38,833 nucleotides of DNA, from the IMG/VR virus record IMGVR_UViG_3300033233_000091, positions 1-38,833 of that record, one strand, 5' to 3'. Both the position numbers and the translations under genes were made by a program. The notes beneath the pieces are model-generated. The model was not told the origin of the DNA. It saw only the letters and a list, made by a program, of their open reading frames with translations, and did no database searches. Origin of the DNA: a virus. This document shows positions 2,648 through 13,662 of this stretch, one piece after another; within the stretch, counting starts at the first letter, position 1; every line of letters begins with the position of its first letter.

Positions 2648-3800
2648 TTAAGCACCCCCTCTTTTTCAATTCTTCAAGCACATCCCCCTTTCGCTTAAGT
2701 ATCTTCCAAACTTTAGGGTCAATTCCCTTTTTATCAATCAATCTTTGCAAATAAACTTTATCCTCTTGCCCATACCGCCAAACCCTACTCAATGCCTGCT
2801 CATATACCCGCCATGCTAAAGGGAGACAAAGAAAGATAATATTCTTATACCTTGTTAAATTAATTCCTTCTGAGATACAGTAGGTTGCTAAGATAGGTTT
2901 CTCTCCTTCCTTCAATGCATCTTCTAAATCCCTCTTGTCTTGCCCCGTCAAAAAATAAACATTCTTCCTACTAAGCTTCTTTACTATATGTTGCAATGGC
3001 TCAATAAAATAACTAAACACTACAGTCTGTGGGTTATCATTTATAAAATCAATTACATAATCAATCTTATCTTTCAATAAAGCACTCTTCCTATACTCAT
3101 ACATAAATGCTTGTAAGATGTTGTCTCCATCAATTTGTTTATCCTTTTGTTCAATTAAATATCGCTCTGACGAAAAATATTTGTCATCATCTATCAAACT
3201 GGGTAATTCAACAATGTCTGCCCGCCTTACAAAATCAACATATGGTAAAACATACCGCTCAATAAATTTGTCCTTTATCCCAGGTAAAAAATCAATAATG
3301 TAGTAAAACATCCCATCAATTCGAAAAAATGAATTCTTGTATTGAGTAAATGATAATTGATTAAACGGATGGTCTGGTCGTAAAATTCTTAATTGACTAT
3401 AGTAATCTTCAGGTTTTTCAAACGGTGTTCCGCTTAACATAACTTTATATGTCTTTGTAAATACTTTCATAACAAGCTTTGTAATCTGGGCTCGGATACT
3501 TTTTAACTTATGTGCCTCATCAAAAATAATCAAATTCCAAAACGCTTTCTTCAATATCTTAGGATAATGCAACCGAAAACTATCATAACTCACAATCTCA
3601 AAATTATTTAACTTTATACCCCACTTCTCAATTTCTTGATACCAGACCTGCTTAACTGATGCTGGGCACATAATAAGCACATTCCGAAAATTCTCAGCTA
3701 TCTTCAACGCCGTTAAAGTTTTCCCAGTTCCTGTTTCCCAAGCTAAATAAGAATACCCTTCGAACTTTTCTACAGCTCTTTGTTGATGCGGTAATAACAT
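2637..3800 (-). CDS. SNF2/DEAD-type superfamily 2 helicase
   Basis: 387-aa DNA-dependent ATPase with all core SF2 motifs visible: motif I ETGTGKT (22-28), motif II DEAH (94-97), motif III SGTP (123-126) and motif VI QALSRVWRYGQ near the C-terminus. The last is typical of the SNF2 branch. Compact phage proteins of this family usually act in replication or recombination, for example fork or branch remodelling. Its start lies 2 bases after the stop of the 65-aa gene upstream. No accessory domains are seen, so the exact substrate is open. Confidence 0.88.
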   Translation of the reverse strand: MLLPHQQRAVEKFEGYSYLAWETGTGKTLTALKIAENFRNVLIMCPASVKQVWYQEIEKWGIKLNNFEIVSYDSFRLHYPKILKKAFWNLIIFDEAHKLKSIRAQITKLVMKVFTKTYKVMLSGTPFEKPEDYYSQLRILRPDHPFNQLSFTQYKNSFFRIDGMFYYIIDFLPGIKDKFIERYVLPYVDFVRRADIVELPSLIDDDKYFSSERYLIEQKDKQIDGDNILQAFMYEYRKSALLKDKIDYVIDFINDNPQTVVFSYFIEPLQHIVKKLSRKNVYFLTGQDKRDLEDALKEGEKPILATYCISEGINLTRYKNIIFLCLPLAWRVYEQALSRVWRYGQEDKVYLQRLIDKKGIDPKVWKILKRKGDVLEELKKRGCLNDE

Positions 3801-3802
3801 TA

Positions 3803-4000
3803 CTAATCGCCTTTCATGTCCTCAAGTAAATCATATAACTCTTCAGCAAGCTGTTCTAAATCTAACTTCCCTGTCTCTTCATATCCTTCAAAATGCTCAC
3901 ATATCTTACAATATGCACTAACTAACCATTCATTCAATTTTTTCTTACTCAAATCCTCAGTCGCTTGGTCTAATAAATCAGCTATTATTACACTAAACAT
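3803..4000 (-). CDS. Small acidic hypothetical protein
   Basis: 65 aa, strongly acidic, apparently all-helical (many Leu, Glu and Asp residues in heptad-like spacing). It starts after a GGAGGG site and lies 2 bases before the SNF2 helicase and 9 bases after the nuclease, so it is co-transcribed with both. Not recognised. A small helical cofactor of one of the neighbouring enzymes is a guess from position only. Confidence 0.7.
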   Translation of the reverse strand: MFSVIIADLLDQATEDLSKKKLNEWLVSAYCKICEHFEGYEETGKLDLEQLAEELYDLLEDMKGD

Positions 4001-4009
4001 TCCACCCTC

Positions 4010-4900
4010 CTATAAGAAAATTCTCTTTATAGGCTTATATTCAACATATTGTTTCTTAATTTCCTCAGGTATATTGTAAAAGGCTCGTTGATATTCTGTG
4101 ATTTTAATAATTTTATCACCAATCTTATAAGTCCCTGCATCCCAGTCCTTCAATTCTTCTTTCAATTCTTTTTCTAACTGCTCATACTGTTTAAGTTTCG
4201 CTTTGATGGCGTAATAAATTTCAAGTTTCTTCATAAAATCAGGGCTTACTTCTACCGTTCTAACGGTGGCTTTCGCATCTTCAGGATAACATTGACTATA
4301 AAATGGGCAAGCTCGGCATAAATCATATTGCTCAATTGCCTTGGGTAAAGTCCCTTTTTGAAGATGTTCTTTAACATGGATAGCTCTTTCAATTATCTCT
4401 TCAATAACCGCTTGGTCTTTCTCTACATCAAAGAAATGATCCTCTCCAGTCCTTCTATCAATTACATAGAATACTCCATGCTCTCTTTTAAGCAATAAAA
4501 TGTAAGCTTGCATCTGGTAATAATACTTTTTTGTCAACTGATTATCATACAAACCAAAACTATCAAGAACCTGTTCATTTGCCGTGCTCTTTATCTCTAT
4601 GAAATCCCCACTTTCTAATACAATATCTACAACCCCCTTCATATCAAGCTCCTCATCTATCACGGGTAATTGGTAAGCCTTAACGGGGACTACCTTTAAC
4701 AACCGCTTCAATGCGACTTCTTCAAATTCATTTCCCACATCAAAAAATTTCTTAGCTTGTTTAACTGGTAATGGTGTCTGCCGTAAAAGAACTAATCTTC
4801 TTTCACAAGGATGCCATAACTCTGTTGGTGGAGTATGCTTTGGACAATAAGTTTCTTGGTCTTGTAAATTAATAAGCTGTTTCAATTCCTGTGCTTTCAT
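4010..4900 (-). CDS. Cas4/RecB-like PD-(D/E)XK exonuclease with predicted Fe-S cluster
   Basis: 296 aa. The PD-(D/E)XK nuclease core is visible: acidic residues in GNEFEE (about 56-61), D92 in GVVDIVLE, E102-x-K104 in FIEIKST, and the QMQAY helix motif (129-133). One cysteine before the core (C32, PCERRL) and three after it (C195, C198, C204 in CRACPFYSQC) match the 4Fe-4S arrangement of Cas4, AddB and related exonucleases. There are no CRISPR genes nearby. Next to a candidate single-strand annealing protein it probably supplies end resection for phage recombination. Start ATG 4900 follows AAGGAGG. Distal residues form a charged coiled coil. Confidence 0.87.
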   Translation of the reverse strand: MKAQELKQLINLQDQETYCPKHTPPTELWHPCERRLVLLRQTPLPVKQAKKFFDVGNEFEEVALKRLLKVVPVKAYQLPVIDEELDMKGVVDIVLESGDFIEIKSTANEQVLDSFGLYDNQLTKKYYYQMQAYILLLKREHGVFYVIDRRTGEDHFFDVEKDQAVIEEIIERAIHVKEHLQKGTLPKAIEQYDLCRACPFYSQCYPEDAKATVRTVEVSPDFMKKLEIYYAIKAKLKQYEQLEKELKEELKDWDAGTYKIGDKIIKITEYQRAFYNIPEEIKKQYVEYKPIKRIFL

Positions 4901-5375
4901 CCTTAGCCTCCTTTATAATTTTTGAATCATATACCAATTGATATAACATTGGCTCAACATCTTTTTGAACATAAGGACCAAACGGAGTAAAATAAACTTG
5001 AATACCACGATAAGTCAATCTTTTAATCAATGACCCCGCAAGACGCCTCTGAACCAATTTTGGTAAAAAACTTGCTTTTTCCTTAACCCAATCCTTAATG
5101 AACAAATACCTTTGCTTCAAATACTTATACTTCCAAATATTATACCACCATAAAAGTTCACTATTACTCCAATTCTTTACCTCATCCTCTAAATACTCTC
5201 TCCACTCATCCCAGTCCAAATAAACAATCCCTTTCATCCGCAACATCTCAGCTCGTGGAACTTTCAAAGCAATAAAACACCCACATCCATAATATTGATA
5301 CCCTAACAAATATCCTATTTCTAATGCTTTCTTTCTTACATCAATCCAAGACCTACAACCAATCCGTGAATACAT
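4869..5375 (-). CDS. Hypothetical protein between nuclease and annealing protein
   Basis: 168 aa, basic and rich in Trp and Tyr, not recognised. The N-terminus carries cysteines in a YYGCGCF stretch. The gene overlaps the nuclease by 32 bases, and its ATG overlaps the stop of the upstream gene, so translation is coupled on both sides. Its place between a nuclease and a candidate annealing protein suggests a DNA-binding or mediator role in recombination, which is inference from context. Confidence 0.72.
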   Translation of the reverse strand: MYSRIGCRSWIDVRKKALEIGYLLGYQYYGCGCFIALKVPRAEMLRMKGIVYLDWDEWREYLEDEVKNWSNSELLWWYNIWKYKYLKQRYLFIKDWVKEKASFLPKLVQRRLAGSLIKRLTYRGIQVYFTPFGPYVQKDVEPMLYQLVYDSKIIKEAKDESTGIETAY

Positions 5376-5842
5376 TACTTCATTACCTCTTCAATTGTCT
5401 TATTCGGTTGCTTATCAAACAATTCCTTTATCACTGTATTTATCACCGCCCCTAAGCATACCTCTGTCGCTCTCTTCATCGCTCTGGTCTCTGCTTTAGT
5501 CAATAAATTATGTAAATTATCAATTCCCTTAAGTTCAGCCCGCTCACAAACTCCTACTCCTTCACCTCGTCTTACAATACCATTTGGAAATACAACCTCA
5601 AGCTCTACTCGAACTAAGGCATAATCTTCTGTTATTTCTCTTTCAATAATCCTAAAATTATACCCAACAGGCAAACTGCTTAACAGGTTAAGAATTCCAT
5701 CCCGCTTTATCTCAATAATATCACCAACTTTCGTCTTAATCCTTGCAAAATCAGTTGGTTTGAGCACCTGCTTAGCAACCTGAACAATCTTTTCTGCTGT
5801 CGCAAGCTCTTTTCTGTCTTCAATTATTTGAACATCAGTCAT
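5375..5842 (-). CDS. Probable Rad52-superfamily single-strand annealing protein
   Basis: 155 aa. A beta-rich middle (about 60-98) followed by a helix with KAETRAMKRA (116-125) resembles the Rad52/Sak/DdrA group, in which a similar K-A-E-T-x-A-x-K-R-A helix is characteristic. These proteins bind single-stranded DNA and anneal complementary strands, and phages often pair them with an exonuclease such as the one encoded two genes downstream. The assignment rests on this motif and context, so an ERF-like or other ssDNA-binding protein remains possible. Start ATG 5842 after AAGGAGGA. Confidence 0.6.
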   Translation of the reverse strand: MTDVQIIEDRKELATAEKIVQVAKQVLKPTDFARIKTKVGDIIEIKRDGILNLLSSLPVGYNFRIIEREITEDYALVRVELEVVFPNGIVRRGEGVGVCERAELKGIDNLHNLLTKAETRAMKRATEVCLGAVINTVIKELFDKQPNKTIEEVMK

Positions 5843-6206
5843 TGCATTCCTCCTTTTTGATTTTTTCTAAACATTTGTCAAGCTCAGCTAATAATTCTTC
5901 CTTAGTCAATTTTTTCGATATCACATAATATTCAATCGCCTCACTTAACAACGCCCCTACCGCATTCTCTTCTCTTATCTTTAATTCCCATCTCGTATCA
6001 TCATAGAACAAATAACTTTTAGCCAATTCCGAACCATACACCGCTTCTAAAAACAAACATGTCTTATAAACCCGCTCCCACCCAAACCTATCATCACAAT
6101 CAATAACTGCATAGAACTTCAAAAATCTCTCCTTCCATTTTTTCACAATTTCCTCAAAATCATTATGCTCTACAACATCATACAAAGTCCTCAATTCATT
6201 AAACAT
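5835..6206 (-). CDS. Hypothetical protein, early operon
   Basis: 123 aa, mixed charge, Trp/Tyr-containing, helical in appearance, not recognised. An in-frame ATG exists at 6221, but the start at 6206 is better placed: GAGGAGGGT lies just upstream, and the longer version would put that site inside the coding region. It overlaps the next gene by 8 bases and the end of the ribbon-helix-helix gene by 8 bases, so it is translationally coupled in the recombination operon. Confidence 0.7.
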   Translation of the reverse strand: MFNELRTLYDVVEHNDFEEIVKKWKERFLKFYAVIDCDDRFGWERVYKTCLFLEAVYGSELAKSYLFYDDTRWELKIREENAVGALLSEAIEYYVISKKLTKEELLAELDKCLEKIKKEECND

Positions 6207-6537
6207 TTTTACCCTCCTCATTTATTATTTCCCAAATCGCTTCCTTAATCAAATCTGCAACCGAACGACCAGTCAATTCACTAATCTTAAGCATTTGTTT
6301 ATAAAGCTCTCTATCCACAGATGAACCAAGCCGTAAAACTTTAGCCTTCCGTTGCCATAATGCATTAACCCCAGTAATCTCATTAGTCAAATATGGTGAA
6401 TATTTCTCATATGCTTTATCCATCGCCTCATCAATTAAATCTGCTATTGACCAGCCAGTTTTACCTAAAAATTGAGCTATCCGTTGCTGAAGTGCTTCAC
6501 TTAACCTAAAAACAAAATTCCTTCTATCTTTCAACAT
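6199..6537 (-). CDS. Tandem ribbon-helix-helix DNA-binding protein
   Basis: 112 aa made of two similar halves. Residues about 5-45 (strand NFVFRLS, then helices with GWSIADLIDEAMDKAYE) and about 66-108 (strand KVLRLGS, then GRSVADLIKEAIWEI) each look like one ribbon-helix-helix unit of the CopG/Arc class. Joined in one chain they could form a dimer-like fold from a single polypeptide. Such proteins bind short palindromes, so this is the best visible candidate for reading the dyads at 12.3-13.2 kb. It follows a perfect AAGGAGGT site and heads the recombination genes, just downstream of the purine-rich gene-free tract. Confidence 0.7.
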   Translation of the reverse strand: MLKDRRNFVFRLSEALQQRIAQFLGKTGWSIADLIDEAMDKAYEKYSPYLTNEITGVNALWQRKAKVLRLGSSVDRELYKQMLKISELTGRSVADLIKEAIWEIINEEGKNV

Positions 6538-7102
6538 ACGCTACCTCCTTTATTAAGTTTATTTGCTTTTCCTTTCAACACAGCTTCTCTCCGCTTCTTA
6601 TCGGGTATAGTCAATTCTTTTCCTACTCCAATCGCCTCATTTTAAGTCAGTTCTTTGCCCTTTCAACTCGTCTCCCATCGAAACGGGTTATTTCCTGTTC
6701 TGTTCAGATTACTTCTATTCTATACCCTTTCCAGTCCCTTCCAATCATCTCAAATCCTCTTCGCCTCTCTTCCAGTCAAATCAAATTCCAATCAACTCAA
6801 CCCCTCTCAATTCCAACTCGTCTCCTTCCCTATCCTAACATCTCCTTACCCCTTCTTTTCTTATCACATTGCCTCCAGTCCTTTCCCCTTCTGGTCCTCT
6901 CCCCTCGCATCCATATTTCAAAACGGATCCAATCAGATCCAAGTCTAGTCAACTCGTGACACCTCTTTTCTTATCCGTTTCTACTCAGTGCCCCTCGAGG
7001 CGTTTCCCTCTTCAGATCAGCTCATTTCCATTCAAATCCATAAGATCATTTCAAATCAGTTCGACTAATTTCCCTTTCGCATCACCTCCTTTCTTCTCCT
7101 TC
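6538..7102 (-). other. Gene-free purine-rich tract (minus strand) between two operon genes
   Basis: 565 bases with no usable ORF on the transcribed minus strand; the ATG after AGGAGGTGAT at 7081-7090 meets a stop after five codons. In 6721-6900 I count 137 pyrimidines of 180 on the plus strand, so the minus-strand RNA would be about 76% purine. Short words recur: CAACTCGTCTCC at 6664 and 6814 (exactly 150 bases apart), CTTTTCTTATC near 6854 and 6965, and several CCAGTC. On the minus strand many of the purine runs resemble ribosome-binding sites. Function unknown; see findings. Confidence 0.75.
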
Positions 7103-7852
7103 TTATTTCTTTTTTACCGATATAACTTTTTTCTTTACACCATCAATTAACCTCTCAAACTCCACAACCTTAAACCGCCCATACTTTGCCCCTCTCCAAC
7201 TGCTTTTACCCCACATCTCCCCTTTTTCAAAAATCTCTAATATTTGCTTATATGTCAATTTTCCACCATAAACCTTCACAATAAACTCCTGTTCCAATGG
7301 TAAATCAAGCATCTCCGACCAAACTATCGTAACAATATATTGACCATATGTCCAACTCCTTAATGACCTCGATAACAAACCATCAGGCTCTTTAATCAGC
7401 TGTCCATTCCTTTGATAAGGTATCAGAAAATCTTTCTTATAATCACCCGTTTCTTCAACTGGACAAATATCTACATATCTGGATATTTGATTTTTCAATG
7501 AGTTCTGAAAATAATGCAATGCAACTTCCTTCATAAAACCTTTAATTTGATAATGGTAATCTGCTAAGTAACCCTCAGGAGTTCTTACAAAAACTTGCAA
7601 CCTACTCTTTTGTTCCTCTTCACTAATTCTCAACTCTTCCTTTGCCTGAAGATCCGCTTTAATACGCTCTATCTCCTTTTCTATCAACTGCTTTTCCTCT
7701 TCGTTCTTTGTCTTCTTTAGTTTCTTCTCAAGCTTCTCAAGCTCTTTCTCTGCCTTTTTTACAATATATTGCTGGGCTAAATCGCTTGCTGGGTTCAATG
7801 CTAAAACTGGAGTTAAATAACTAATCTTTACATAAAACTTGTCAATCTGCAT
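7103..7852 (-). CDS. Conserved phage-type protein with QIKGF motif, function unknown
   Basis: 249 aa. Residues about 26-84 form a very charged coiled coil, followed by a globular part with DYHYQIKGFMKEVA (about 98-111) and a Gly/Arg-rich end (WGKSSWRGAKYGRF). I recall phage proteins of unknown function, often encoded with recombination genes, that share the YQIKGF motif and a similar end; I cannot name the family or its activity. Start ATG 7852 after AAGGAGGTG. The purine-rich gene-free tract begins directly after its stop. Confidence 0.7.
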   Translation of the reverse strand: MQIDKFYVKISYLTPVLALNPASDLAQQYIVKKAEKELEKLEKKLKKTKNEEEKQLIEKEIERIKADLQAKEELRISEEEQKSRLQVFVRTPEGYLADYHYQIKGFMKEVALHYFQNSLKNQISRYVDICPVEETGDYKKDFLIPYQRNGQLIKEPDGLLSRSLRSWTYGQYIVTIVWSEMLDLPLEQEFIVKVYGGKLTYKQILEIFEKGEMWGKSSWRGAKYGRFKVVEFERLIDGVKKKVISVKKK

Positions 7853-11885: not shown

Positions 11886-11912
11886 AATCCCACCTCCTCC
11901 TTTTTTAGTTTT

Positions 11913-12122
11913 TTAATTGACTAATGGATTTTGAATAAACTTAGCTTTCTTTTTAAGAACCAAATAAGCCCGCTCTTCAACTGTTAAATCATCAACCAAC
12001 CGATCGACTGTAATATCAAAAAAATTACTCAAAAACTCAACCTCTACCCTTGACAACTTGACCCTTGATAAATCCAATTTCCAATAACTACCCTTCAATA
12101 AATCCCTTACCTTTTCCATCAT
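11913..12122 (-). CDS. Small hypothetical protein with EERAYLVL motif, first gene of P5 unit
   Basis: 69 aa. The segment LTVEERAYLVLKKK matches LSDEERAYLVLQRY of the 108-aa protein at 9093-9419, where it likewise lies in a predicted helix; outside this the two are not obviously alike. Each is the first gene after one of the repeated promoters. ATG 12122 follows GAGGGGGTG. Function unknown. Confidence 0.65.
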   Translation of the reverse strand: MMEKVRDLLKGSYWKLDLSRVKLSRVEVEFLSNFFDITVDRLVDDLTVEERAYLVLKKKAKFIQNPLVN

Positions 12123-12151
12123 CTCAGCACCCCCTCATTATTTTTCTTTTT

Positions 12152-12179
12152 AGTATAACATACTTTTTAAAATTGTCAA
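12152..12179 (-). promoter_or_regulatory. Promoter P5, sigma-70 type
   Basis: Minus strand: -35 TTGACA (12179-12174), 16-base spacer, -10 TATACT (12157-12152). Predicted start near 12145; the first gene begins at 12122. Upstream of the -35, at 12196-12290, lies a run of ATAACC-like words. Confidence 0.82.
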
Positions 12180-12195
12180 GACCTTACCCGTAAAA

Positions 12196-12290
12196 TTTAT
12201 AACCAAACCAACCAAATCCATAACCATGCCCATAACCTAACCTATACCCATAACCAAACACATACCTTGACCTATACCCTAACCATCAAC
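12196..12290. repeat. Degenerate ATAACC / CCTATACCC repeats
   Basis: ATAACC occurs at 12199, 12220, 12232 and 12250, with CATACC and CTATACCC variants between, all within about 90 bases just upstream of P5. Similar words (ATAACCTAATAACC, 13133-13146) lie beside the dyad copy at 13156. Spacing is irregular, so this is not a simple tandem array. Confidence 0.55.
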
Positions 12291-12295
12291 CTAAT

Positions 12296-12310
12296 TTAGA
12301 ATTATTCTAA
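12296..12310. repeat. 15-bp dyad, copy 1
   Basis: TTAGAATTATTCTAA: perfect 7-bp arms around one base. An identical copy is at 13156-13170, a one-mismatch copy at 13091-13105, and a related dyad AAAGAATAATTCTTT at 12460-12474. Looks like the site of a dimeric DNA-binding protein. Confidence 0.7.
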
Positions 12311-12317
12311 TTTAGTA

Positions 12318-12435
12318 GGATATATGAGAAGAGATTTTCTCAGATTTTTTTTTTCAATTTTTTCATTTGTGAAAAATTTCACAAATATATTTTCTAAGCA
12401 ATTTTCATTTTTTACTTTCCTTTTCTCATATATCC
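12318..12435. repeat. Nested concentric inverted repeats
   Basis: Outer arms GGATATATGAGAA (12318-12330) and TTCTCATATATCC (12423-12435) are perfect complements. Inside them ATTTGTGAAA (12365-12374) and TTTCACAAAT (12377-12386) form a second perfect pair two bases apart. The two symmetries share a centre to within one base (12376.5 and 12375.5). Candidate origin, operator or resolution site. Confidence 0.75.
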
Positions 12436-12731
12436 CACTACTTTATAACAATTCTAAACAAAGAATAATTCTTTATTACTAACAATTCTAACTCAATTCT
12501 TACATAATTTGAAGGACTTCCGAAGCACCGAATTCTTGACCAAATTGTATTATTTATATATTTATATGTTTACCTTGTTTTATTGTTTATATATTTTATT
12601 GTTGACCAAAGAACTAATTGTGATTTAATTAACAAATGAACTGGTAAATTTTCCCCACTTTTTCCTTACAAAGCTTAATTTGCTATCTATCCATCTGATA
12701 TTATGTTATTTTTAATAAAAGTTAAGCTTGT

Positions 12732-12890
12732 GAATTATTTACCAAAGAATATGATAAATTGACCGACTATTTAACACTGATTTGACCCCTCTTTTTACAA
12801 AATTGTACAATTTGTGAATTGCTTACCATACCATAGTTTTAAAATTTGTCATTATTGAATTGTTTACCTAAGAATATGATAATTGACTGG
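12732..12890. repeat. 33-bp imperfect direct repeat, two copies
   Basis: GAATTATTTACC(A)AAGAATATGAT... at 12732-12764 recurs at 12857-12890 with a few substitutions and one base less before TTGAC. A shorter relative (GTGAATTGCTTACCA) lies at 12814. Copies are 125 bases apart in the non-coding region. Confidence 0.6.
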
Positions 12891-12931
12891 ACAAGCGACC
12901 GCCTAAAGCCAGAATAAGATTTTTAATTACC

Positions 12932-12960
12932 AATATAACCATAGTTTTTAGAATTGTCAA
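12932..12960 (-). promoter_or_regulatory. Promoter P7, orphan copy of the cassette promoter
   Basis: Minus strand: -35 TTGACA (12960-12955), 17-base spacer, -10 TATATT (12937-12932). A weaker relative lies at 12825-12852 (ATGACA, TATGGT). Neither is followed by an ORF, so they may be leftovers of lost cassettes or may make a non-coding transcript through the control region. Confidence 0.55.
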
Positions 12961-13090
12961 GTCCTTAAAATTCCGATTTTTAATCTAATATCTTATTTAC
13001 TCTTTTCTTTTTTCATTCATTTTTTCATTCTTTCATTTTTTCAAAAATTCTTTTACTTGCTCATGTATCCTATTTAAAACTCTTCTAATC

Positions 13091-13170
13091 TTAGAATTTT
13101 TCTAACCTGGATACCTATCGTCTGAAAAACTTATAACCTAATAACCAAACTAATCTTAGAATTATTCTAA
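13091..13170. repeat. 15-bp dyad, copies 2 and 3
   Basis: TTAGAATTTTTCTAA (13091-13105) and TTAGAATTATTCTAA (13156-13170), 65 bases apart. Copy 3 is identical to the dyad at 12296-12310. Confidence 0.7.
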
Positions 13171-13239
13171 ACAGGAAGCAATCAAGATATTCTTATATTC
13201 CCCGCTAAATTAATCAACAAATAAACTATTACCTCGATA

Positions 13240-13439
13240 GAACCATTACAAGATTAGATTAATTATCAATCCGATTTGCGAACCATTATAAAATTAGACT
13301 AATTATCAATTTGACTTACGAATGATTACAAAAATAAACCAATTATCAATTTGACTTGCGAATAAATGTTAGGTTGAAAGAATTATTAAATTGAAATTAG
13401 AATGATTACATGGTTGGATGAATTTTTAGGTCGGTCGGT
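13240..13439. repeat. 40-bp tandem repeats (iteron-like)
   Basis: Units at 13240, 13280 and 13320 are contiguous and 40 bases long, starting GAAYSATTAYAA and containing AATTATCAATY then GAYTTRC. Adjacent units agree at 33 of 40 positions by my count. A fourth unit (13360) is degenerate and a fifth (13400) keeps only its first third. No spacers separate them, so this is not a CRISPR. Directly repeated sites of this kind often bind a replication initiator. Confidence 0.8.
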
Positions 13440-13450
13440 GGATGTGAAAA

Positions 13451-13462
13451 GCCCCAGCGGGG
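13451..13462 (-). terminator. Possible leftward terminator
   Basis: CCCC (13452-13455) and GGGG (13459-13462) with a 3-base loop, followed on the minus strand by CTTTTC. It could stop antisense transcripts coming leftward from the portal unit before they enter the origin region. The stem is short, so confidence is low. Confidence 0.35.
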
Positions 13463-13508
13463 GTGGGTCGCCCTCGTATGTCGTTTATGCAGGGGGAGGT
13501 ATATAGGT

Positions 13509-13652
13509 TTGTTCATTGATTTATTAATTGATTTATTCGATGGTAAAGTTGCTGATTATTTATACGGAGTAGTGGGTTTGTTTTTTTTTAGGTCAAATTT
13601 TCGGTTTAGGGACTTGATTTTTGGTTTGGTATGGTTTAAGATAGGGTTGTAG
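13509..13652 (+). CDS. Possible small hydrophobic protein (47 aa, TTG start)
   Basis: Open frame of 47 codons from a TTG at 13509 that follows a very strong GGGGGAGGT site (13492-13500) at 8 bases. Its stop TAG overlaps the ribosome site of the next gene, as in coupled phage genes. The product is hydrophobic and aromatic (FIDLLIDLFDG..., VVGLFFF..., DLIFGLVWFKIGL) and could span a membrane. No family is known. The non-ATG start and low complexity keep confidence modest. Confidence 0.42.
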   Translation: MFIDLLIDLFDGKVADYLYGVVGLFFFRSNFRFRDLIFGLVWFKIGL

Positions 13653-13662
13653 GGGGTTAAGT

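What the first reader, a model, noticed from the sequence alone, without database searches (positions are those of the whole stretch)
6538..7102. 565-base purine-rich transcript segment with no ORF inside a packed operon
The minus-strand RNA is about 76% purine in the counted part. It is studded with SD-like runs (AAGGAGA twice, several GAGGGG, AGGAGGTGAT) that lead to no gene, and has recurring short words with one 12-base repeat exactly 150 bases apart. A phage wastes little DNA, so it should have a function. Ideas: an RNA that titrates ribosome 3' ends or an RNA-binding protein, a triplex-forming DNA element, or a remnant of a decayed repetitive gene.
Basis: partly seen in the sequence, partly recalled or inferred. 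Interest (0 to 1): 0.6.

Follow-up and report, generated by a model that had tools for sequence, protein, structure and literature searches.

The report
Phage guide-RNA array, VIPR type
The 'empty' purine-rich stretch is most likely a guide-RNA array, built as G-A-N-N-N five-letter units with an extra G every five or so units, that works with the CRISPR-related RAMP protein encoded just upstream: a hot-spring-phage variant of the VIPR phage-versus-phage system reported in a 2026 preprint.

Summary
In detail: 565 nt with no ORF, 71% purine, inside a packed operon. The RNA is a strict pentanucleotide array, (G-W-N-N-N)n (here mostly GANNN), with an extra G about every 5 units, giving a coherent 5.20-nt period. 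It scores 127-131 against at most 10 in shuffled controls. The gene just upstream (7103-7852) encodes a RAMP protein resembling CRISPR Csm3/Csm5/Cas7, with a G-rich C-terminal loop. Every relative that keeps this gene has such an array after it (17 loci, including Hydrogenobaculum phage 1). One relative lacking the gene lacks the array. A pattern scan of IMG/VR found the same arrays in unrelated phages; in 11 of 15 a homologous RAMP gene lies directly next to the array, and in a twelfth 543 nt away. This matches VIPR (Vipr protein plus vrRNA; preprint PMC13142463): RAMP-bound RNAs of alternating GGY/NN motifs that recognise DNA non-contiguously and repress competing phages. I read the segment as a vrRNA array, the 249-aa gene as vipr, and the ribbon-helix-helix gene as a possible accessory gene. 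It differs from the published consensus (GA for GGY, continuous array, regular hexamers). Targets were not found. Ribosome-decoy, triplex and decayed-gene ideas are not supported.

The parts
6567..7102 (-). vrRNA-like array: about 104 units of G-W-N-N-N (mostly GANNN) with an extra G (hexamer) about every 5 units
7103..7852 (-). 249-aa RAMP (Csm3/Csm5/Cas7-like) protein with a coiled-coil insertion (residues about 22-84) and C-terminal G-rich loop (WGKSSWRGAKYGRF); proposed vipr
6199..6537 (-). 112-aa protein with ribbon-helix-helix domain(s) (Pfam RHH_3 with two stretches; PHROG Arc-like repressor); candidate DNA-binding accessory gene (vap)
6538..6566 (-). end of the array and Shine-Dalgarno (AAGGAGG from 6550) of the ribbon-helix-helix gene; about 30 nt, so little room for a structured 3' tail
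6582..6656 (-). most conserved guide block (GAACT GACTT AAAAT GAGGC GATTG GAGTAg GAAAA ...), shared in register with L002, L003, L005 and in part with L007, L014, L034
6777..6847 (-). second conserved guide block (GAGAT GTTAG GATAG GGAAG GAGAC GAGTTg GAATT GAGAG ...), shared in register with L002, L003, L005; first modules also in L007

Best explanation
The segment is transcribed with the early operon and is an array of VIPR-type guide RNA. The RAMP protein encoded immediately upstream polymerises along it, about one protomer per pentamer, holding the fixed G-W of each unit and presenting the variable N-N(-N). The presented letters together specify a gapped DNA target, probably in competing phages or other mobile elements, and binding represses it. 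Shown here: the periodic non-coding array, its near-invariable linkage to a RAMP gene across unrelated phages, the RAMP-like fold, and the fast change of the variable letters against the slow change of the scaffold. Inferred from the VIPR preprint (PMC13142463): transcription into guide RNAs, RNP assembly, gapped DNA recognition, and action against competitors. The DNA-binding ribbon-helix-helix protein downstream may be the accessory (vap) gene.
For: Period 5.20 nt in the 15 arrays tested, with no 3- or 6-nt period. HMM recovers G 86%, W 97%, three free positions, and extra G after 4-6 pentamers. Pentamer runs between hexamers are under-dispersed: variance 2.7-6.4 against 24-40 expected at random. 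No second array in the window (next best score 20). All relatives with the RAMP gene carry an array behind it whichever gene follows; L012, without the gene, has none. A blind pattern scan found arrays in unrelated phages of 32-54% GC. A leave-one-out HMM finds a RAMP homologue (E 1e-24 to 1e-63) directly beside the array (within about 35 nt) and on the same strand in 11 of 15 such contigs, and 543 nt away in a twelfth, L048. Profile-profile match between the two protein sets: 99.5%, E 3.6e-22. Full-length structural matches are almost all CRISPR RAMPs (Csm5, Csm3, type VII Cas7, Cas6; Z 7-8.4). Scaffold letters change at 0.10-0.13 and variable letters at 0.19-0.25 in homologous blocks. Published system; its SUSP1 array was read here as a positive control.
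Against: No target found: 16 arrays against 0.43 Mb of related phages under several skip rules gave nothing beyond a post hoc hint, and two IMG/VR scans gave only unrelated, non-extending matches. The window consensus is GANNN, not GGYNN. No room for a 3' tail like that of SUSP1. Direct HMM match to the SUSP1 Vipr is weak and confined to the G-rich loop (21%, E 0.001). The structure model is of moderate confidence (pLDDT 68-70). No expression data.
Confidence: 0.88

Rival explanations
1. The RAMP protein coats this periodic RNA for another purpose (an RNA scaffold, a decoy of the host's CRISPR RAMP complexes, or autoregulation of the operon), without guide function.
For: No target identified. 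The host group may well have class 1 CRISPR (own knowledge, not tested). The array is continuous, without a separate tail.
Against: Three of every five letters are free and change faster than the scaffold, as expected of a guide. Homologous blocks are kept but reordered between phages. The experimentally tested relative is a guide system.
Confidence: 0.08
2. A DNA-level element: R-loop or replication origin, or half-helical-turn phased DNA (5.2 bp is half of 10.4 bp).
For: Period 5.20 is close to half a B-DNA turn. Purine-rich RNA forms stable R-loops; the phage encodes a family A DNA polymerase.
Against: The inserted letter is almost always G at a fixed place in the unit, which helical phasing would not require. 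Linkage is to a RAMP gene across unrelated phages, not to replication genes.
Confidence: 0.02
3. A decayed or cryptic gene (protein-coding repeat gone to ruin, or plus-strand ORFs 6655-6948 and 6869-7150).
For: Long open frames on the pyrimidine strand.
Against: No 3-nt period in the window. No relative has an intact gene there. The opposite-strand frames are open because the array avoids C and stop codons are rare in its complement. Triplets read from the units keep as many stops as expected.
Confidence: 0.01
4. Ribosome decoy: RNA that titrates ribosome 3' ends through its SD-like words.
For: AAGGAGA x3, AGGAGGTGAT x1.
Against: In relatives and distant phages the scaffold is GTNNN, without SD-like words, while the 5-nt phase and the RAMP linkage stay.
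Confidence: 0.01

Closest known systems
VIPR (Viral Interference Programmable Repeat) systems, Vipr + vrRNA, type II of Escherichia phage SUSP1 (PMC13142463; KT454805)
   Same: Phage-encoded single RAMP with a C-terminal G-rich loop (SUSP1 GDWRPRFGRF, here GKSSWRGAKYGRF); adjacent long non-coding stretch of tandem pentanucleotides with fixed G + W/Y letters and variable letters; small DNA-binding accessory gene nearby
   Different: Scaffold GANNN (435 of 575 units in the window clade) instead of GGYNN (SUSP1: GT/GC 37 of 38 units; fifth letter G in 86%, against 29% here); one continuous array of about 100 units instead of several about 100-nt RNAs with tails; an extra G every 4-6 units; coiled-coil insertion in the RAMP
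CRISPR class 1 RAMPs (Csm3, Csm5, type VII Cas7, Cas6)
   Same: Fold over residues 1-245 outside the coiled coil, Z 7-8.4
   Different: No CRISPR array, no other cas effector genes beside it; 5-nt instead of 6-nt register
Phage large non-coding RNAs (Rfam, e.g. ROOL, GOLLD)
   Same: Long phage RNA of unknown role
   Different: No Rfam match; little structure (fold z -1.7); periodic, C-poor

Membership tests
VIPR | Phage- or provirus-encoded RAMP homologue with RRM core and G-rich loop (vipr) | tested here: met
   Structure comparison: full-length matches almost all CRISPR RAMPs, Z 7-8.4, moderate-confidence models; invariant W-G-x-S-x-W-R-x-A-x-Y-G-R motif; profile match to array-linked RAMPs 99.5%
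VIPR | Adjacent non-coding RNA of tandem pentanucleotides with fixed and hypervariable letters | tested here: met
VIPR | Exact GGY/NN consensus (the preprint also allows 'a related consensus') | tested here: inconclusive
   Window clade is GANNN with the preceding G relaxed; the preprint's figure of related consensuses (fig. S17) could not be read
VIPR | Invariable structured 3' tail after 9-16 repeats (described for the SUSP1 clade; array architecture varies among the seven types) | tested here: inconclusive
   The array runs to within about 30 nt of the next gene start; no tail seen; whole-array fold z -1.7
VIPR | Accessory (vap) gene with predicted DNA interaction | tested here: inconclusive
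   Ribbon-helix-helix protein next to the array, but in other relatives the next gene differs
VIPR | RNA made and bound by the Vipr protein | not testable with these tools
   needs small-RNA sequencing and pull-down
VIPR | Variable letters match DNA of competing elements by a gapped rule | tested here: inconclusive
   No significant targets in 0.43 Mb of related phages or two IMG/VR pattern scans
CRISPR-Cas class 1 | CRISPR array and multi-gene cas operon | tested here: not met
   No regular repeat array and no other RAMP or Cas effector recognised in the neighbourhood; a Cas4/RecE-like nuclease lies four genes further downstream in the operon
Rfam RNA families | Covariance-model match above the gathering score | tested here: not met

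The most novel reading that the evidence does not exclude
Phages of hot-spring bacteria (Hydrogenobaculum and probable relatives) and many unrelated phages carry a VIPR variant with its own code: GA or GT followed by three free letters, read in one continuous array of 350-840 nt, with an extra G every 4-6 units that keeps a 5.20-nt register and marks short modules which are shuffled between phages like cassettes. The window clade uses GA in place of GGY. If all three letters are read, the recognition rule would differ from the published two-letter, one-skip rule.
Probability: 0.45. Interest if true: 0.75.

Novelty: new variant of a known kind. Interest (0 to 1): 0.62.

Why it matters
It shows that an apparently empty, annotation-free gap in a phage operon can be a readable guide-RNA array, and gives a simple sequence signature (G-W every 5 nt, extra G about every 5 units, period 5.20) that finds such arrays without knowing the protein. 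It extends VIPR-type systems to phages of deep-branching thermophiles, including a GenBank phage annotated as hypothetical throughout (Hydrogenobaculum phage 1), and shows a different scaffold (GA) and array layout from the characterised one, which bears on how the code is read and on the origin of CRISPR RAMPs.

Tried and rejected
Rfam and tRNA scans of the whole window: nothing. blastn against phage records: nothing. Exact word repeats as the signal: near chance in the window. Decayed ORF or cryptic gene, also reading the three free letters as codons: stop triplets not depleted in the sense or antisense reading; a mild depletion in one shifted reading (z -2.7, -1.2, -2.3 in three sets) was not followed up. 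Target search with two or three letters per unit and 0-3 skipped bases, with and without an extra base at hexamers: no rule stands out; for the three-letter, no-skip rule 1 of 40 shuffles reached the real mean, but this rule was picked after the fact among many options. Its best hit lies in a large 1450-aa open frame of a relative (L067:13616), score 19.2, which 2 of 40 shuffled sets also reached, taken as chance. Two IMG/VR scans for gapped targets of conserved guide blocks hit only unrelated contigs of 39-48% GC and the matches did not extend. Genome-contig scan for the RAMP protein: none. Foldseek alone gave no significant PDB match; the coiled coil dominates such lists. Pfam, PHROGs, NCBIfam and PADLOC do not know the RAMP family.

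Full report
WHAT WAS CHECKED. The flanking genes belong to one minus-strand operon. Exact repeats are near chance for the composition, so they are not the point.

THE REAL PATTERN. Autocorrelation of the gap and of the corresponding gaps of relatives shows peaks at lags 5, 10, 15-16, 21, 26, 31 and 36; lag 6 is below expectation and lag 3 only marginal (combined Z 21 at lag 5). Fourier analysis gives a sharp common period of 5.20 nt with its half at 2.6, strongest for G. A cyclic hidden Markov model trained on 15 gaps learns, without being told the letters, a unit G-W-N-N-N (G 86%, W 97%) plus an inserted G, and beats a first-order Markov model by 844 log units. In the window the array runs from 7102 to about 6567 (about 104 units; score 127-131, shuffled window at most 10). 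The spacing string reads 5555565555565555556 and so on: one hexamer after about five pentamers, far more regular than random placement (variance 2.7-6.4 against 24-40). The modules are thus about 26, 31 or 36 nt long. Shine-Dalgarno-like runs and purine richness follow from a scaffold of GA.

LINKAGE TO A RAMP PROTEIN. Homologues of the upstream 249-aa gene were found in IMG/VR contigs and in Hydrogenobaculum phage 1. Every one is followed by a 350-840 nt non-coding array of the same period, whether the next gene encodes the ribbon-helix-helix protein or something else. In L031 an ORF sits between gene and array. L012 lacks the gene and the array and shows only a short stretch resembling the array's 3' end before the ribbon-helix-helix gene. 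The arrays share blocks of 12-30 nt that are often in a different order. In homologous blocks the scaffold letters change at rates 0.10-0.13 (mostly G to A, A to T) and the three free letters at 0.19, 0.25 and 0.25.

The 249-aa protein is unknown to Pfam, PHROGs, NCBIfam and PADLOC. AlphaFold models from 9 and 17 sequences are of moderate confidence (pLDDT 70 and 68). In both, the chains that align over the whole length are almost all CRISPR RAMPs (Csm5 9g9i_G Z 8.4, rmsd 4.7 A, 122 aligned; Csm3 6ifl_F Z 8.2, rmsd 4.3 A, 128 aligned; type VII Cas7 8z9c_A Z 8.0; Cas6 6dd5_A Z 7.4-7.9), while the other high rows match only the coiled coil of residues 22-84. The C-terminal WG-x-S-x-WR-x-A-x-YGR motif is invariant and looks like the RAMP G-rich loop.

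BLIND TEST. A scan of all IMG/VR contigs for the spaced pattern alone, (GWNNN)5 G (GWNNN)5 G (GW), returned 22 stretches. Four belong to the clade already known (L038, L049, L051, L053), one is a GTCTG microsatellite (L039) and one is a weak 3.5-kb region at the end of its locus (L040). Most of the rest have unmistakable arrays (scores up to 264, up to 237 units) in contigs of 31-54% GC. Leaving out L054 as a second site of the L044 contig, 15 contigs remain. With a leave-one-out profile, 11 of them have a RAMP homologue (E 1e-24 to 1e-63) directly beside the array (within about 35 nt) on the same strand, and in a twelfth (L048) it lies 543 nt away with a weak second RAMP-like frame next to the array. 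In L052 the gene lies downstream of the array as oriented. L044 and L057 have only weak candidates, and L058 starts inside its array. The profile of these proteins matches the profile of the window clade with 99.5% probability, E 3.6e-22. So the protein and the array form one system found in unrelated phages. A stricter scan for GA-only arrays returned only three contigs of the window clade: the GA scaffold seems particular to it, whereas distant arrays are 86% GT (1244 of 1450 units).

WHAT IT IS. A preprint of 2026 (PMC13142463, read) describes VIPR: a phage-encoded ancestral RAMP (Vipr) with RNAs of tandem YNNGG repeats (GGY/NN). The NN letters specify a gapped double-stranded DNA target with a one-base skip; the RNP represses competing phages, satellites and prophages; accessory genes are DNA-binding proteins or enzymes; seven types exist, some with 'a related consensus' and with staggered arrays. 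I read the SUSP1 locus as a positive control: its YNNGG tracts are visible and its Vipr ends in GDWRPRFGRF. Mapped onto this, the W here is the Y of VIPR, the two following letters its NN, the fifth letter its first G (86% G in SUSP1, 29% here), and the G its second G. Each of the three SUSP1 tracts that the finder parsed also ends in an extra G, which suggests, without proving it, that the hexamers here mark module ends.

HOW IT MOST LIKELY WORKS. Shown: a periodic non-coding array, near-obligatory RAMP partner, RAMP-like fold, conserved scaffold with fast variable letters, cassette-like shuffling. Inferred: RNP assembly with about 5 nt per protomer, presentation of the variable letters, gapped DNA recognition, repression of competitors, and an accessory role for the ribbon-helix-helix protein. 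Direct sequence similarity to the SUSP1 Vipr is limited to the G-rich loop, so placement within VIPR rests on fold, locus layout and RNA signature.

WHAT WAS NOT FOUND. Targets. Sixteen arrays were compared with 0.43 Mb of related phage contigs under rules with two or three letters per unit, 0-3 skipped bases and different treatment of hexamers; no rule is significant after allowing for the number tried. Two gapped-pattern scans of IMG/VR for conserved guide blocks returned only unrelated contigs whose matches stop at the searched core. The true competitors may not be in the data, or the code may differ from the published one.

NOVELTY. As a kind it is known since the preprint. The GA scaffold, relaxed first G, single continuous array with an extra G every 4-6 units and 5.20-nt register, and the thermophile-phage setting are not described in its main text; the supplement could not be read, so the layout may already be one of its seven types. 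I therefore call it a new variant of a known kind.

Noticed in passing
window 11886-13662: Large non-coding region between the leftward early genes and the first rightward gene, with a 40-bp tandem repeat (3.1 copies, 13240-13362) and CCATAACC-type repeats (12218-12294); possible origin or control region.
   Followed up: no
L003-L008, L012, L016 upstream of the ribbon-helix-helix gene: A strong sigma-70-type promoter (TTGACTTTTTTAAAAATTATGGTATAAT or close variant) sits between array end and ribbon-helix-helix gene in most relatives but is missing in the window, L002 and L014.
   Followed up: partly
L012:1700-1800: Relative without the RAMP gene and without an array; a short AAAATGAGGCGATAGGGG stretch resembling the array's 3' end is left before the promoter, suggesting loss of the whole unit.
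   Followed up: partly
L021 / KP282676 15036-15206: Annotated hypothetical protein ALG96926.1 of Hydrogenobaculum phage 1 lies inside the array and is probably not a gene.
   Followed up: no
L050:4156-5140, L058:4-1233, L057:1955-2745 and 3564-4865, L043:5608-6388: Very long arrays (150-250 units) in unrelated viral contigs; L057 carries two. L040:65-3570 scores over 677 units but weakly per unit.
   Followed up: partly
L031:4553-5020: An extra ORF (MKVLGVLCSCKFCSPNKVAYWYPCGC...) lies between the RAMP gene and its array, showing that the array is a separable element.
   Followed up: no
window 4010-4900 and 5375-5842: Cas4/RecE-like PD-(D/E)XK exonuclease (phrog_434 E 2e-17, PADLOC Cas4 E 1e-13) and, two genes upstream in the operon, an unclassified 155-aa protein that might be a single-strand annealing partner (guess from motif only).
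   Followed up: no
window 6655-6948 and 6869-7150, plus strand: ORFs of 97 and 93 aa on the pyrimidine strand are by-products of the C-poor array.
   Followed up: yes
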